IMG/VR virus record: IMGVR_UViG_3300037882_001062
Coordinates: 1-24,469 of that record
Source: a virus
DNA length: 24,469 bases
Reading direction: 5' to 3' (one strand)
Of this stretch, positions 2,684 through 24,162 are shown one piece after another (the first letter of the stretch is position 1; each line of letters starts with the position of its first letter). The notes below the pieces were generated by a model that saw only the letters and a list, made by a program, of their open reading frames with translations, was not told the DNA's origin and made no database searches. Both the position numbers and the translations under genes were made by a program.

Positions 2684-4350
2684 GCGTGCACCGTTTCGAG
2701 TGACGAAACAAGGTCATCGTTCGCGTCAGAAAGACCGCGAGAAACGCCCCGGCGAACGTCCTCGACACTTCCCCCGGCGGCGTTGACGTAAACGTTCTGT
2801 GTGGCTCGTACTTGGTTGGCGTTCGTGCTGGCGTACGTCACGTTACCGCCCGCCGGTTGCCTGCTTGCCACGGTTCCAACCGGTTGCGTAGGACTACCAC
2901 CGCCGCCGGGTAGCTTGAACCCGATCTTGAGTACGTTGGTTAGATCCATATCGGTGAATTTGTCTTTCAACGCCTTCACCATATCGTCGGCTAGCGTACC
3001 CATGTTCTCAATTAGGTCGCCTGCTCCTTCCTTGATCGCCTTCCAAATGTCGTCGGGGATATCTAAGCCCATCTTGCGCCACTTCTCTTTTTGACCGTCG
3101 ATGTACTCGGTCAGTAGTGTGTTGAGCTTGCTATACCCCTCACTGATTTTCGAGATTAGCCCGATCGGATTTAGCGAACTCGCAACCACTAGAGCGTAAT
3201 CGATGAACTCGCCTTTACCGGACGCAATCTTGGCGGAAGCGATGTCAAACGCTTCGTTTAGATCGTCGGCGAAGAACTTAACGAGCGAGGCGCCGAGCGT
3301 CGAGAAAGATTCTTCGATCTTGCCCATGAGTGTGGGCTGTTTTTCCATTTTACGATTCAGCGCTTCGATGTCCTTTCCGATCTCAGAAAAGACGGAATCG
3401 CCAGCACCTTCACCAAAGACCTTATCCAAGAACCGACCAGTCAGCGAGTCTCCGCCTTCGAGTCCGGTTTTCAGATCGTCCACTACCAGGATGATGCCAG
3501 CGATTAGCGCAAGCATTGGCAGATAGGGGACCATCATCTTGACGCCGGCAGCAAAGCCAGCAACGCCCATAACAGTCATAGCGGTTCCTAGTTTCTTGCT
3601 CGCTCCTTCGCTATTACTGAACGTTGCTGCCATCTTCGTTACTCGGTCAACCACGCTCGTTAGTGTTGGCATGATTGCGAGCGCTAGCTTGCCCTTTAGC
3701 GACGTTACAGAAGCGTTATATTTGATCGTTGCATCGTCAAGCCCGGCCATCGCTTCGATCGCGTCTTCGGTCAAGCCGCCGCCGGTCGCTTCGAGTTGAC
3801 CTAGAAGATCCTCGATACCTTCGGCACCGCGTGAGAACATCGGCCCGAGTGCTGCGCCTTGCTTGCCGAATACCTCAATCAAGCGCTTGTTGCGGGTACC
3901 AGCGTCTCCGATCTCGGCGATGCTTCGCGCAACGGTCAGGAGCGTTCCCGGCGTGTCTTTGGCGGCGGCGTTAAGATCCTTGATCCCTAGGTTCTTAAAC
4001 GCACTAGCCGCTTCGCCGCCATCCTCAGCGGCTTTCGCTAGGTTCACCTGAAACTTAGTCAGCGAACCGTTAAACGCTTCCGTCTCTACGTCCGAGAGGT
4101 TCGCCGCTAGTTGCCATTGCTGAAGCGCCGTCGTACCGATACCGAGCTTATCGGCGGTTGCGGCTATACCGTCTCCGAGATCTACCATCTCGGTTATGAA
4201 GTTCTTAACGCCGCCCGCAATCTCAGCGCCGATGAGCGCTCCTCCGACGTCACGAAGCGAGCCCACGAAGGCGTCAACCTTCTTGCTTGCGCCGGTAAGC
4301 TTGCTCGTGTCGGCGTCTACAGTGAACCGGGCGATAACTTCGCGTAGCAT
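2680..4350 (-). CDS. Tail tape measure protein
   Basis: A 556-aa protein starting with ATG at 4350, immediately after the frameshift product of the tail chaperone. It begins 'MLREVIARFTVDADTSKLTGA', typical of tape-measure N-termini. Long helical stretches follow, then a strongly hydrophobic segment at about residues 256-291 of the kind thought to enter the host membrane. The glycine- and asparagine-rich C-terminus resembles tape measures that dock on the baseplate. At roughly 1.5 angstrom per residue, a rule of thumb for helical tape measures, it would specify a tail of about 80 nm. No lysozyme or peptidase motif was seen. Position between chaperone and Dit-like gene confirms the role. Confidence 0.9.
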   Translation of the reverse strand: MLREVIARFTVDADTSKLTGASKKVDAFVGSLRDVGGALIGAEIAGGVKNFITEMVDLGDGIAATADKLGIGTTALQQWQLAANLSDVETEAFNGSLTKFQVNLAKAAEDGGEAASAFKNLGIKDLNAAAKDTPGTLLTVARSIAEIGDAGTRNKRLIEVFGKQGAALGPMFSRGAEGIEDLLGQLEATGGGLTEDAIEAMAGLDDATIKYNASVTSLKGKLALAIMPTLTSVVDRVTKMAATFSNSEGASKKLGTAMTVMGVAGFAAGVKMMVPYLPMLALIAGIILVVDDLKTGLEGGDSLTGRFLDKVFGEGAGDSVFSEIGKDIEALNRKMEKQPTLMGKIEESFSTLGASLVKFFADDLNEAFDIASAKIASGKGEFIDYALVVASSLNPIGLISKISEGYSKLNTLLTEYIDGQKEKWRKMGLDIPDDIWKAIKEGAGDLIENMGTLADDMVKALKDKFTDMDLTNVLKIGFKLPGGGGSPTQPVGTVASRQPAGGNVTYASTNANQVRATQNVYVNAAGGSVEDVRRGVSRGLSDANDDLVSSLETVHA

Positions 4351-9992: not shown

Positions 9993-11167
9993 CGGCTGGA
10001 TCCTTTCGCGCTGTTACGCGCTTCGCGTTTCTCGCGGAGAATGTCCGCTTCGGTCTTAGTCGGTTTCGGAGCGTTCAGCGGCCCGGAACCGCCGCCCCTT
10101 GCGGCATCGATCCCATCCGTTCGCGGCGGCCCGGGCGGGGGGTCTGCGGGCGGTTTGGGTGCGTCGCCGGGCATTGCATCGGGCTTATCCCCCGGCGCTG
10201 CATCGGGCTTGCTACCGGCCTTCCCGGCGGTTTGCTGTAGAAGCATCATGAGTTGCTCGTGACTCAGCGCCAAAGCACCGAAGTCCAAGCCCGGATGGGC
10301 GTCTTTGAGAATTGACAAAAGGATCTCATCGTCGGTTCCTTCGTCAAGCTTCTTGCCATCCAGTTTGATCTTGCGGGCGGCGGCTTCCGTCAGCAGTGAA
10401 GCCCGACCGGCGGCGGCTTTGCGGATTGCTTCCGGCGACGCTTTCAGCTCAGCAGCGGCCCGGGCTTTGTCTGCCACATCAACGCGCTTTTCAGCGTCGC
10501 TGACTTGCGAAACAAGAGCAGCGATCTTCGCGTCAACCGCCGAGATATGCTCGGCGCTTCCTGCGGTAAAGTCCTTGCCATCGATTCGGTGAATGGTCAT
10601 TAGTGCGCTTTCGTTTGATTGTTCATCGTAGTCGAGTTCGGCCGCATCGGTTCTCAGCGAAACATCGCGCCCTAACCGCCCGCTACCCTTCGGTAGCAAT
10701 GCAACGTGATTATAGACAATCTGCGTTTGTACTGCATCGTAAATTTCGCCGCTGTCTGTCACGCCAGGCGTATCGAGTAGCACGCAATCGTAGCCGCACG
10801 ACAGATCCCCAGCATCACCCGAGTCGACTTTAGCGATCTCGGTAGCCGATGAAACGACTACATCACTAGTGACATAGTCAGACTCTACGTTTACGACGTC
10901 AGAGACATGACCGATCGACAGATCTTTCCAGTTATCGGCGCTTACGAACTCGGTAGGGTGAAGCCACGTTAGAGTGATACCGCGCAACGTGGCAAGCGAC
11001 GCCGGGGAAAAGACCTCAGCGGGCGGGCGGTACTCACGAATACGTGCACCGTCATCGCGTCGATAGACAGCCACGCACGATTTCGTAAGGTTGGCCTTAG
11101 CTCGCAAAGAACCGTCAAGCATGCGCTCGAACGATACCGAGTCTAGTCGAGTGAACCGGGCGGTCAT
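9989..11167 (-). CDS. Prohead protease with scaffold-like tail, DUF2213-like
   Basis: A 392-aa protein with an ATG at 11167 that overlaps the preceding stop as ATGA. The N-terminal 170 residues have the DUF2213 pattern: 'GARIREYRPPAEVF', 'GITLTWLHPTEF', 'DLSCGYDCVL' and 'YNHVALLPKGSGRLG'. By analogy with U35/S78-type prohead proteases, Ser123, His70 and His154 are the likely active-site candidates; this is inferred. Residues 200-310 are helical and probably act as internal scaffold. The last 80 residues are rich in Pro, Ala, Gly and Asp with a short KPDA.PGD repeat, then a basic C-terminus. A protease fused to a scaffold explains why no separate scaffold gene is present before the capsid gene. 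Confidence 0.8.
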   Translation of the reverse strand: MTARFTRLDSVSFERMLDGSLRAKANLTKSCVAVYRRDDGARIREYRPPAEVFSPASLATLRGITLTWLHPTEFVSADNWKDLSIGHVSDVVNVESDYVTSDVVVSSATEIAKVDSGDAGDLSCGYDCVLLDTPGVTDSGEIYDAVQTQIVYNHVALLPKGSGRLGRDVSLRTDAAELDYDEQSNESALMTIHRIDGKDFTAGSAEHISAVDAKIAALVSQVSDAEKRVDVADKARAAAELKASPEAIRKAAAGRASLLTEAAARKIKLDGKKLDEGTDDEILLSILKDAHPGLDFGALALSHEQLMMLLQQTAGKAGSKPDAAPGDKPDAMPGDAPKPPADPPPGPPRTDGIDAARGGGSGPLNAPKPTKTEADILREKREARNSAKGSSR

Positions 11168-20790: not shown

Positions 20791-20831
20791 GGTAAGCCTT
20801 TCGTTGATTGTTGAATTGATAGATCGTTTTG

Positions 20832-20904
20832 CTGCGTCCCTTGGAGTTGAACCAAGGATCGTCCACTGTTACCAGGGATCGGCTTTACCTTTAAGCGAGA
20901 CGCA
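20832..20904 (-). ncRNA. tRNA-like element with a tetraloop in place of the anticodon loop
   Basis: In the minus-strand RNA a 7-bp acceptor stem forms (TGCGTCT with GGACGCA, one G-U), then a D-arm GCTT-AAAGGTA-AAGC with the usual A14, G18G19 and A21, and a T-arm CTTGG-TTCAACT-CCAAG with a consensus T-loop. The 25 nt between them do not make a 5-bp stem with a 7-nt loop and T33. They fold best as TCCCTG-GTAA-CAGTGGA, a hairpin with one bulged base and a GNRA tetraloop. Only one base separates acceptor and D stems, and CCA is not encoded. It may be a degraded tRNA gene or a tRNA mimic. Confidence 0.5.
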
Positions 20905-22064: not shown

Positions 22065-23705
22065 TTATATTACCTTGTCCGCGTATATTAGTTTTTGTTC
22101 TTGCTGCATTACTTCTTCTTGGAATCGCGACATGTTCAACGCTTCGTCCCAAGCGGCTTCATGCTCCGGTGTCAGAATGAAAACGTCATACTCGACTGAG
22201 TCCGCTTTTTGCCCGTCTCGGTGAAGCCTTCCGAGGTTTTGCTCCCATAGCGCGGCGTTCATCCCCGGCGACACCACAAGTGCCCTTGACCAGTGCTGCA
22301 AGTTCCTTCCTGTACTATTGGCCTTTATAGACGCAATGCAAGCGGAATCGGTAGGGTGGCTTTCGATTGTTTGGCCGTAGCGGTTTACTCCCCGGCGACC
22401 GTAGTAGGAGATCCCTAGCTCTTTCTCGAGACGCTCAGCAAAAGCGCGGTGCTCCGTCCAGACAATACCGGGCTTGCGGATCCATTCTCTGACTCGCTCG
22501 ATTCCCCAGTTTGAGATCCAAACTGGTTCGGTACGCGGCTCGAAGGAGTCTTTGATGTTTGACCAATCTCGATAAGCAAGCGCCGCGGTTGGGTAATCGT
22601 GGGGGTGCTGTAGTATGTGGTTGACCACGGCGAATTGCGTATCAAGGTTCCGTTGATTGTTCCTCAGCACTTTCCGACAGTTCGCACTCCAAACCTTGCG
22701 CGCTTCTAGCCAGTCTTTCGGCGGGCGAGGATCCCACCTGTAGAAAAAACCTAGGGCAAGTTCCCTAGCGTGGCGCTGAACGTCCTTACCGTCGAATAGT
22801 GGCCACTCGTCAGGTGTCTCCCACTTGTCTCGGAGCGTCGTTAGTGCGGCTTGCAAGTCCGGCGGCGGCGTATGTCGCACGTGTCGAATCACGAGTGAGC
22901 AACCAATGTCGTTTGGACTGTCATGGGTTGCGACGATACCCGGCGTTTCGTTCAGTCTCCGCCCGTACCCGAGACGAACTCGAGTTCGCGGATCCTCCCC
23001 AAACGACTCAGCAAGGGCGATCAAGGCGCCCGGTTCTATATCGGTATCTTTGGCGTCTAGCAGTGACGCCCAGTCCCTTAGTTCGCGCTTGTGGATAGGT
23101 ACCGGGGCGTTTACGGCGCCGAGACACCACCTAAGCAAATGGGCAAAGTCTAAGATCGAAGTGCGCGTAAAAGTCCCGCTAGCGGCAACGAACACACATT
23201 CGGGGTGTTCTTCGCGGTAGCGAGCTACTCGACGTGTGACGCCGGCGTCCAAATTCTTGAGCTTGTGGGCTTCGTCACAAAAAACCAAGTCCGGACCGTA
23301 CGCGTCAAGAGCCGTCACACTACCGATCCTGCTCAGCGTTTCGTAGGACTCGATCCGGTAGTAATTGGGGACGTCCCAGTGTTCGGACAGATGGCCAAAC
23401 TCGATTTTCGTTTTCCCGACAAGGGATGCCGGAAGGAGTAGGAGCGGTCGCTTTGAGCCGAGCACCGCCGGCGCTAGCGCGCTGATAAGCGTTTTCCCGC
23501 TACCAACGCGCTGAGGTAGTGCGGCTCCTCGGTGCTCTGCCATTTCATAAAGCGCTTGCGCTTGATTTGGCCTAAGCTGCATCCCACGTTTGCGACGGGC
23601 TAGAACTCGCGTTAGTTCCGCCGCAAACGTTTTATCGTCTGTCCAGACTCTACGCGGTAGCGAGAGTATCCGGGCAAGATCGGGGGATGCGCAGATCGCT
23701 TTCAT
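22065..23705 (-). CDS. SF2 (Snf2/DEAH-type) DNA helicase
   Basis: A 546-aa protein starting at ATG 23705. An in-frame GTG at 23732 lies inside the tRNA-like T-arm and is rejected. Motifs: 'LRPNQAQALYEMA' (Q-like), Walker A 'RVGSGKT' (about 66-72), Walker B 'LVFCDEAHKLKN' with DEAH at 144-147, motif III 'VAASGTFT', and motif VI 'QNLGRLHRDGQKAD' (489-502), which is typical of the Snf2-like group. A 110-residue insertion separates the two RecA-like lobes. It probably remodels or unwinds DNA during phage replication or recombination. Its Shine-Dalgarno GAGGA (23713-23717) lies within the acceptor stem of the tRNA-like element, with a 7-nt spacing to the ATG. Confidence 0.9.
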   Translation of the reverse strand: MKAICASPDLARILSLPRRVWTDDKTFAAELTRVLARRKRGMQLRPNQAQALYEMAEHRGAALPQRVGSGKTLISALAPAVLGSKRPLLLLPASLVGKTKIEFGHLSEHWDVPNYYRIESYETLSRIGSVTALDAYGPDLVFCDEAHKLKNLDAGVTRRVARYREEHPECVFVAASGTFTRTSILDFAHLLRWCLGAVNAPVPIHKRELRDWASLLDAKDTDIEPGALIALAESFGEDPRTRVRLGYGRRLNETPGIVATHDSPNDIGCSLVIRHVRHTPPPDLQAALTTLRDKWETPDEWPLFDGKDVQRHARELALGFFYRWDPRPPKDWLEARKVWSANCRKVLRNNQRNLDTQFAVVNHILQHPHDYPTAALAYRDWSNIKDSFEPRTEPVWISNWGIERVREWIRKPGIVWTEHRAFAERLEKELGISYYGRRGVNRYGQTIESHPTDSACIASIKANSTGRNLQHWSRALVVSPGMNAALWEQNLGRLHRDGQKADSVEYDVFILTPEHEAAWDEALNMSRFQEEVMQQEQKLIYADKVI

Positions 23706-23790
23706 TGGTGAATCCTCGTGGAATCGAACCACGTTAACCCTACTTTAAGATGCATCCTGTAGGGTTGTCCTACCGCTAGACGAAGGATCC
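23706..23790 (-). tRNA. tRNA-like gene with CCA but an enlarged, non-decoding anticodon arm
   Basis: The fold is GGATCCT/AGGATTC acceptor (one G-U), T8-C9, D-arm GTCT-AGCGGTA-GGAC, T-arm CGTGG-TTCGATT-CCACG, A73 and an encoded CCA, all matching tRNA consensus. Between the D and T arms, AACCCTAC pairs with GTAGGGTT (8 bp), enclosing 15 nt with a near-palindrome (GGATGCATCT), instead of 5 bp and a 7-nt loop. No placement gives T33 and a normal anticodon. Total 85 nt with CCA. The CCA is followed directly by the helicase ATG. It could be a disrupted tRNA, a tRNA mimic or a cis-acting processing element. Confidence 0.6.
23713..23717 (-). promoter_or_regulatory. Helicase ribosome binding site inside the tRNA-like acceptor stem
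   Basis: GAGGA lies 7 nt before the ATG at 23705. These bases are positions 65-69 of the tRNA-like fold, at the junction of T-stem and acceptor stem, so folding would hide the site. Processing at the 3' CCA would remove it from the helicase mRNA. Confidence 0.6.
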
Positions 23791-23812
23791 AAACACCCCG
23801 ATTAAGGGGCGT
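23791..23812 (-). terminator. Weak terminator-like hairpin before the tRNA-like element
   Basis: ACGCCCC pairs with GGGGTGT in the minus-strand RNA (one G-U, which would be a mismatch on the other strand), with a 6-nt loop and a short TT after it. It could end part of the upstream transcripts or mark the 5' leader of the tRNA-like RNA. Confidence 0.4.
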
Positions 23813-23817
23813 AGGTG

Positions 23818-24162
23818 CTACAGGAAAAACGGAGCAAGCACGTTCAGCTCAGACAGAGAAGTGAACGGTACCGAGAAGTCATAGCCGCCGTATCGGTTGA
23901 CGATCCGTGAAATGTCGGTCTGCTTTCCGATTGGTCGAATTGAGTAATTGATTTTTCGGATCGGTGTCGAAACCGAGCACTCGACTTCCCAACAAACAAC
24001 CGCGTCAAGATTCGTTAGAACCGCCCGGGCGATCGGTGCAATATCGTCAATCGACCGAAGATCGCCGTTGATGATGAGGAAATCTTTTCCTTCGAGTACA
24101 CCGAGCATGCCACGACCAATTGCGCGCCTAGCTACGAATTCCCGATCGATGTCTCGATCCAC
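23818..24162 (-). CDS. DHHA1-like small protein (114 aa)
   Basis: GTG at 24162 follows the TAA of the upstream gene by three bases, with GAGG about 10 nt before it. The C-terminal half reads 'IRKINYSIRPIGKQTDISRI' and continues VNRYGG. This resembles the DHHA1 domain of DHH phosphoesterases such as NrnA, where SlRs.g.vDvs.iA..yGGGGH is typical. Here GGGGH is replaced by GGYDF, so the nucleic-acid-binding glycine loop is altered. The N-terminal catalytic DHH domain is absent. It could be a relic, a stand-alone binding domain, or a coincidental resemblance. It is the last gene before the tRNA-like element. Confidence 0.5.
   Translation of the reverse strand: MDRDIDREFVARRAIGRGMLGVLEGKDFLIINGDLRSIDDIAPIARAVLTNLDAVVCWEVECSVSTPIRKINYSIRPIGKQTDISRIVNRYGGYDFSVPFTSLSELNVLAPFFL

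What the first reader, a model, noticed from the sequence alone, without database searches (positions are those of the whole stretch)
23706..23790. tRNA-like element without an anticodon loop, fused to the helicase start
Seen: acceptor, D and T arms and an encoded CCA are near consensus, but the anticodon arm is an 8-bp helix with a 15-nt loop and no T33. The CCA is directly followed by the helicase ATG, and the helicase Shine-Dalgarno is part of the acceptor stem. Known: tRNA 3' ends are cut by host RNases and CCA is the signal for stopping. Inference: each transcript could yield either a tRNA-like RNA or translatable helicase mRNA, so tRNA processing may control helicase expression, or the RNA may act as a tRNA decoy for host enzymes or anticodon nucleases.
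Basis: partly seen in the sequence, partly recalled or inferred. Interest (0 to 1): 0.78.

Follow-up and report, generated by a model that had tools for sequence, protein, structure and literature searches.

The report
Phage tRNA mimic without anticodon loop
An uncultured phage carries two RNAs that fold like transfer RNAs but have no loop that could read the genetic code, and similar code-less tRNA look-alikes turn up in many other phages, so they may be functional mimics (perhaps decoys) rather than merely broken tRNA genes, although decay is not ruled out.

Summary
At 23790→23706 (minus strand) there is a cloverleaf with a 7-bp acceptor, 4-bp D arm, 5-bp T arm and encoded CCA. It scores 35.1 bits against Rfam tRNA (cut-off 29). 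The anticodon arm is an 8-bp helix with a 15-nt loop and no U33. CCA is followed directly by the helicase ATG. The closest useful relative has an ordinary tRNA-Gln(UUG) at that second position and no tRNA before its helicase. The joint to the helicase is not special: ordinary phage tRNAs also have CCA|ATG joined to a gene (e.g. rusA). Elements with an intact acceptor, D and T arm but a remodelled anticodon arm are frequent in phage contigs, cluster in particular phages, and one subfamily shows covariation in the enlarged arm. My best reading is a tRNA-derived, non-decoding RNA acting in trans, possibly a decoy for a host tRNA-binding enzyme; helicase control is less likely. No close relative exists, so decay of a tRNA gene remains a serious rival. 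New variant of a known kind (phage tRNAs and tRNA mimics).

The parts
23706..23790 (-). tRNA-like element 1 (whole): cloverleaf with remodelled anticodon arm and encoded CCA
23784..23790 (-). acceptor stem, 5' strand GGATCCT
   Evidence: pairs 7/7 with 23710-23716
23767..23781 (-). D arm GTCT-AGCGGTA-GGAC
23736..23766 (-). anticodon-position arm: 8-bp helix AACCCTAC/GTAGGGTT with 15-nt loop AGGATGCATCTTAAA; no 7-nt loop, no U33
23717..23733 (-). T arm CGTGG-TTCGATT-CCACG
   Evidence: only exact GGTTCGANTCC in the window
23710..23716 (-). acceptor stem, 3' strand AGGATTC (holds part of the helicase Shine-Dalgarno GAGGA, 23717-23713)
23706..23708 (-). encoded CCA, directly before the helicase ATG
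22065..23705 (-). SNF2-like DNA helicase gene, ATG at 23705
   Evidence: PHROG 62 DNA helicase 2.4e-20; relatives' N-termini align near this start
20829..20904 (-). tRNA-like element 2: 6-bp acceptor, D arm GCTT-AAAGGTA-AAGC, arm closed by a GTAA tetraloop instead of an anticodon loop, 6-bp T stem CCTTGG/CCAAGG, tail GCAA
   Evidence: MFE is a cloverleaf, z -3.1 on mononucleotide shuffles; same gene context as G002's tRNA-Gln
23818..24162 (-). 114-aa ORF of unknown function upstream of element 1; with element 1 it is extra relative to G002, where the Pro-rich ORF directly precedes the helicase

Best explanation
Element 1 (and element 2) are tRNA-derived RNAs that keep everything needed to be made, processed and recognised as a tRNA (acceptor, D and T arms; CCA in element 1) but whose anticodon arm has been rebuilt so that they cannot decode. 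Shown: the structure, the tRNA homology, the absence of a decoding loop, a second copy in the same phage, and recurrence of the architecture in many phages with at least one covarying subfamily. Inferred: the RNA is cut from the early transcript by RNase P and 3' processing, accumulates, and acts in trans by engaging host tRNA-binding proteins, most simply as a decoy or titrant for a tRNA-targeting enzyme that reads the acceptor/T-arm elbow or the shape of the anticodon arm. The helicase start immediately behind it is compact packing. A cut exactly after CCA would leave a leaderless helicase mRNA; an uncut transcript would have its Shine-Dalgarno inside the fold.
For: Structure and homology. 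Two elements in one 24-kb phage, both non-decoding, none canonical. Among helicase/terminase relatives two further tRNA-like genes have non-standard loops with an intact anticodon stem (G008 6 nt, G005 8 nt) against four ordinary ones; 4:4 versus 7:439 in other phage contigs, p 1e-5. A pattern for type-I D arm + T arm with an enlarged middle hits more than 120 viral contigs. In phage contigs, non-canonical elements still pair their acceptor 6-7/7 in 67 of 82, against 76 of 82 for canonical ones, and T stems are equally intact. They co-occur in the same contigs (15:151 versus 7:439, p 5e-5). Subfamily A2 covaries in acceptor, T and enlarged arm (12 pairs changed on both sides, 0/500 shuffles). 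Precedents for tRNA-targeting defence: anticodon-loop variants of phage tRNAs (PMC10264068) and Cas12a3, which binds T arm, acceptor stem and CCA (PMC12851939).
Against: No close relative of this phage was found, so neither conservation nor covariation of element 1 itself could be tested. G002 has an ordinary tRNA-Gln at element 2's position, as expected if the window's copies are degenerate descendants. Element 2 lacks CCA and has a bulged arm. G15 lacks its usual C48 partner in element 1. No RNA, processing or binding data. The comparison sets were chosen after seeing the element; G005 and G006 are distant terminase relatives only; co-occurrence could also reflect phages in which tRNA genes are under relaxed selection.
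Confidence: 0.43

Rival explanations
1. A decaying tRNA gene: an ordinary phage tRNA (Gln-like) suffered an insertion in the anticodon loop and is drifting, with the other arms not yet eroded.
For: G002 and G006 carry ordinary tRNA-Gln(UUG) genes; element 1's V region and T arm differ by one base over the last 20 from G002's tRNA-Gln; element 2 sits where G002 has that tRNA, lacks CCA and has a bulged arm. Chryseobacterium tRNA-like genes appear to carry a dispersed palindrome in the arm.
Against: Acceptor, D and T arms are fully paired; the remodelled arm itself is a perfect 8-bp helix; two such elements and no canonical one in this phage; class-level acceptor retention and covariation.
Confidence: 0.36
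2. Cis-acting control of the helicase: the fold hides the helicase Shine-Dalgarno, and tRNA 3' processing or unfolding decides between a tRNA-like RNA and translatable mRNA.
For: SD GAGGA is inside the T/acceptor stem and CCA abuts the ATG; the fold is stable in context.
Against: The helicases of relatives checked have no such element; CCA|ATG joints also occur behind ordinary tRNAs; element 2 is not joined to a start codon; other elements of the class lie at varied distances from the next gene; pairing of the D arm with early helicase codons is not significant (p 0.07).
Confidence: 0.12
3. A decoding tRNA whose extra nucleotides are removed as a small intron.
For: Archaeal tRNA genes with small introns are found by the same pattern.
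Against: In those archaeal genes U33 and the anticodon are visible 5' of the insert (CUGUUA etc.); here no U33 lies there, and the only excision that restores U33 removes nucleotides 5' of the anticodon and gives UAA or AAA. There is a bulge on one strand only, not a bulge-helix-bulge. The encoded proteins match phage families of bacterial type.
Confidence: 0.03
4. An attachment-site remnant of a host tRNA.
For: Phages often carry tRNA 3' halves as attP (PMC10865867).
Against: The element is a whole cloverleaf including the 5' half, lies in the replication region, and no integrase was noticed among the ORFs (not searched for specifically).
Confidence: 0.02

Closest known systems
Ordinary phage-encoded tRNAs (e.g. 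G002 tRNA-Gln(UUG))
   Same: Acceptor, D and T arms; V/T region nearly identical; position in the early replication region
   Different: No 7-nt anticodon loop, no U33, anticodon arm 8 bp + 15 nt
Phage tRNAs with anticodon-loop changes that escape anticodon nucleases (PMC10264068)
   Same: Phage tRNA altered at the anticodon loop
   Different: Those still decode; this cannot
T4 RNA C (species 1 RNA), stable RNA of the T4 tRNA region, role unknown (PMC3014915)
   Same: tRNA T arm and a partial acceptor at the 3' end with a large replaced middle; phage-encoded
   Different: T4 RNA C is 139 nt and has no clear D arm or complete cloverleaf in my scan; no encoded CCA in the annotated RNA
tmRNA tRNA-like domain
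   Same: Acceptor and T arm without anticodon
   Different: No tag ORF, no G3-U70 wobble pair, ARAGORN tmRNA search negative
Bacterial/phage Y RNAs (YrlA) that mimic tRNA (own knowledge)
   Same: Non-decoding tRNA mimic
   Different: No YrlA match reported in Rfam scans; no Ro60/TROVE gene in the window or 19 other records; here the acceptor end is free with CCA

Membership tests
tRNA (Rfam RF00005) | covariance model score above the curated cut-off | tested here: met
   35.1 bits, cut-off 29; element 2 not reported even at E 10
tRNA (decoding) | 5-bp anticodon stem, 7-nt loop, U33, readable anticodon | tested here: not met
   8 bp + 15 nt, no U33 in any register; ARAGORN none
tRNA (processing) | matured RNA with 3' CCA | not testable with these tools
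   CCA is encoded; no RNA data
archaeal-type intron-containing tRNA | U33 and anticodon 5' of the insert, bulge-helix-bulge at the joint | tested here: not met
tmRNA | Ala identity G3-U70 wobble pair, tag ORF, pseudoknots | tested here: not met
   A3-U70 pair by sequence; ARAGORN tmRNA search negative
YrlA-type Y RNA | Rfam match and Ro60 (TROVE) partner | tested here: not met
non-decoding tRNA-like elements in phages (class described here) | intact acceptor/D/T arms, non-decoding anticodon arm closed by a helix | tested here: met
   element 1; class:
non-decoding tRNA-like elements in phages (class described here) | enlarged arm maintained by covariation | tested here: inconclusive
   met for subfamily A2; no homologues of the window's own arm found

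The most novel reading that the evidence does not exclude
Phages widely encode a class of non-decoding tRNA mimics, tRNA genes with the anticodon arm replaced by other hairpins, which act as decoys against tRNA-targeting host defences or as tRNA-scaffolded regulatory RNAs. The window's phage carries two of them.
Probability: 0.3. Interest if true: 0.82.

Novelty: new variant of a known kind. Interest (0 to 1): 0.52.

Why it matters
tRNA finders require a 7-nt anticodon loop or report such genes as undetermined or pseudogenes, so a class of intact but non-decoding tRNA-like genes would be filtered out of phage annotation. Host defences increasingly turn out to act on tRNAs, and the authors of the Cas12a3 study state that phages would need a yet unknown means to counter cleavage of tRNA tails (PMC12851939). 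A tRNA mimic that offers acceptor, T arm and CCA without taking part in decoding is an obvious and testable candidate.

Tried and rejected
Near and distant DNA searches, and protein searches for helicase, terminase and capsid relatives: no close relative; best helicase relatives are 40-46% identical. A D-arm pattern for same-type enlarged elements in viral contigs: 0 hits strict, 11 weak hits loose. Helicase-start fusion as a conserved regulatory device: rejected as the main reading. Archaeal-type intron: rejected. tmRNA and Y RNA: rejected. A D-arm/helicase-codon switch: p 0.07, not pursued. A coding ORF over the element: no ORF of 20 aa or more except the helicase extension and antisense frames. 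The upstream 114-aa ORF: no family. A weak cloverleaf-like hit after the helicase of MW202816 (score 35) is within noise. Literature searches found no description of such a class; the library held is open-access only.

Full report
What is there. The window is a whole virus record of 24,469 bases; the main genes, with phage packaging, head and replication functions, lie on the minus strand. Between the end of a 114-aa ORF (23818) and the ATG of an SNF2-like helicase (23705) the sequence is filled by a tRNA-like element, 23790→23706. Acceptor (7 bp), D arm (4 bp) and T arm (5 bp) are fully paired, the D and T loops have the consensus bases, and CCA is encoded. The anticodon arm is an 8-bp helix with a 15-nt loop; no register gives a 7-nt loop with U33. 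It is a real tRNA relative: RF00005 at 35.1 bits, cut-off 29. ARAGORN and a filtered whole-window scan miss it. In a cloverleaf scan that ignores the anticodon region it scores 51; nothing in 8 Mb of random sequence of the same dinucleotide make-up exceeds 38.

A second element. The same scan finds another at 20904→20829 (score 47). Its MFE structure is also a cloverleaf: 6-bp acceptor, U8, D arm GCTT/AAGC, an arm ending in a GTAA tetraloop with one bulge, a 6-bp T stem, and GCAA instead of CCA at the end. It lies between a gene weakly similar (24% identity, E 0.011 for this single comparison) to the one before the ordinary tRNA-Gln(UUG) of relative G002 and the next ORF, so it is probably the positional counterpart of that tRNA. 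The phage thus has two tRNA-like genes and neither can decode.

Relatives. No close relatives were found in the collections. Distant ones come from terminase and helicase. I fetched nearly all of their records and scanned them (a short part of one long record was skipped). G002, G006, G013 and G014 have ordinary tRNAs. G008, the best helicase relative (46%), has a cloverleaf with a perfect stem but a 6-nt loop. G005 has an 8-nt loop, which ARAGORN calls 'tRNA-???'. None of the helicases of G002, G008, G009 or G010 has a tRNA directly in front. In G002 the Pro-rich ORF that lies further upstream in the window directly precedes the helicase, so the 114-aa ORF plus element 1 look like an addition in the window's lineage.

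The joint to the helicase. Of about 85 sites examined most are ordinary tRNAs followed by short frames, but several run straight into genes, such as L141, tRNA-Arg(ACG) into a RusA-like gene, L126, tRNA-Met into a DNA-methylase-like frame, and L111, tRNA-Gly into a 117-aa frame (the names RusA and methylase are my reading of the translations). So CCA|ATG with part of the ribosome-binding site in the acceptor is compaction that also occurs with ordinary tRNAs and not a sign of a special device.

The wider class. Many of the 80 read in detail have 7/7 acceptors, 5/5 T stems, a normal V region and, in place of the anticodon arm, hairpins of about 30-60 nt. In unselected phage tRNA loci the rate of such non-canonical elements is 7 to 439 canonical. 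In contigs already carrying one it is 15 to 151 (p 5e-5), and several of the extra ones have a perfect stem with only a 4- to 6-nt loop. Their acceptors are nearly as intact as those of canonical genes (6-7 pairs in 67/82 versus 76/82). One subfamily of six keeps a conserved core (TCAWGGYNAAGGRCC) and covaries in acceptor, T and enlarged arm: 12 pairs changed on both sides, 0 of 500 shuffles as high. With only six sequences this is supportive, not final. The same pattern in cellular genomes finds mainly archaeal intron-bearing tRNAs, which serve as a control and look different (U33 and anticodon 5' of the insert), plus a few bacterial elements.

How it most likely works. Shown: structure, homology, loss of decoding, recurrence. 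Inferred: processing into a stable RNA and action in trans on a tRNA-binding enzyme. The decoy reading fits what host defences recognise: many cut anticodon loops, and Cas12a3 binds T arm, acceptor and CCA (PMC12851939; PMC10264068). Other trans roles, such as a tRNA-scaffolded regulatory hairpin, are equally compatible. Decay of a tRNA gene is the main rival; for the window's own elements I could not exclude it because there are no close relatives.

Known precedents. T4 RNA C, a stable RNA of the T4 tRNA region with no known role (PMC3014915), has a tRNA T arm and a large replaced middle. tmRNA and, from my own knowledge, YrlA Y RNAs are established non-decoding tRNA mimics; neither fits here. 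I found no paper on this class in the library, which covers open-access papers only.

Caveats. The scanner and comparison sets were made after seeing the element; the baseline comes from contigs chosen for a CCAATG motif; 'relatives' such as G005 and G006 share only a 25-30% identical terminase; and no RNA evidence is available.

Noticed in passing
window 20829-20904 (-): Second non-decoding tRNA-like element with a GTAA tetraloop in place of the anticodon loop, at the position of G002's tRNA-Gln; missed by ARAGORN and by Rfam even on the short stretch.
   Followed up: yes
L204:2480, L236:3200, L248:2451, L254:10997, L259:1137, L251:5151 (coordinates on the matched strand): Subfamily of phage tRNA-like elements with conserved core CTCAWGGYNAAGGRCCNAAAYGC in the enlarged arm and covarying stems; the 5' side reads like a CAU/CAA anticodon loop. 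L248 lies near a GOLLD RNA.
   Followed up: partly
L326, L345, L348, L356, L361, L363, L379, L381: Chryseobacterium species share tRNA-like genes whose anticodon arm holds a palindrome (ACTTTYCGCT..AAAGTTCCTAT) that also occurs dispersed just downstream, as if a REP-like repeat had entered the tRNA gene; acceptor, D and T arms are kept across at least eight species.
   Followed up: partly
L237:589-670 (-): tRNA-like element in which the anticodon arm is a near-perfect long hairpin (ACCATCTTCGATGGCCATCGAAGATGGT).
   Followed up: no
L205 (two elements at 3589-3657 and around 1205-1305, -): A 5.5-kb phage contig with two non-decoding tRNA-like elements of different loop type and an SNF2-like helicase-type gene nearby, like the window.
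   Followed up: no
L141, reverse strand, T-arm match at 3770: Ordinary tRNA-Arg(ACG) whose CCA runs directly into the ATG of a RusA-like gene.
   Followed up: partly
L310 1409-1547 (T4 RNA C): T4 RNA C ends in a perfect tRNA T arm (CCGGG-TTCGAAT-CCCGG) and a partial acceptor; role unknown.
   Followed up: partly
window 10154-10201 (-): Weak CRISPR-DR29 Rfam match (25.2 bits, below cut-off 39), inside a coding region; probably chance.
   Followed up: no
window 23791-23815 (-): Hairpin ACGCCCC-TTAATC-GGGGTGT directly upstream of element 1, possibly a terminator or processing site for the upstream gene.
   Followed up: no
window 23704-23757 (-): Short frame of 17 codons starting with an ATG in the enlarged loop and ending at a TGA that overlaps the helicase ATG (ATGA); could allow coupling but is compatible with chance.
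   Followed up: no
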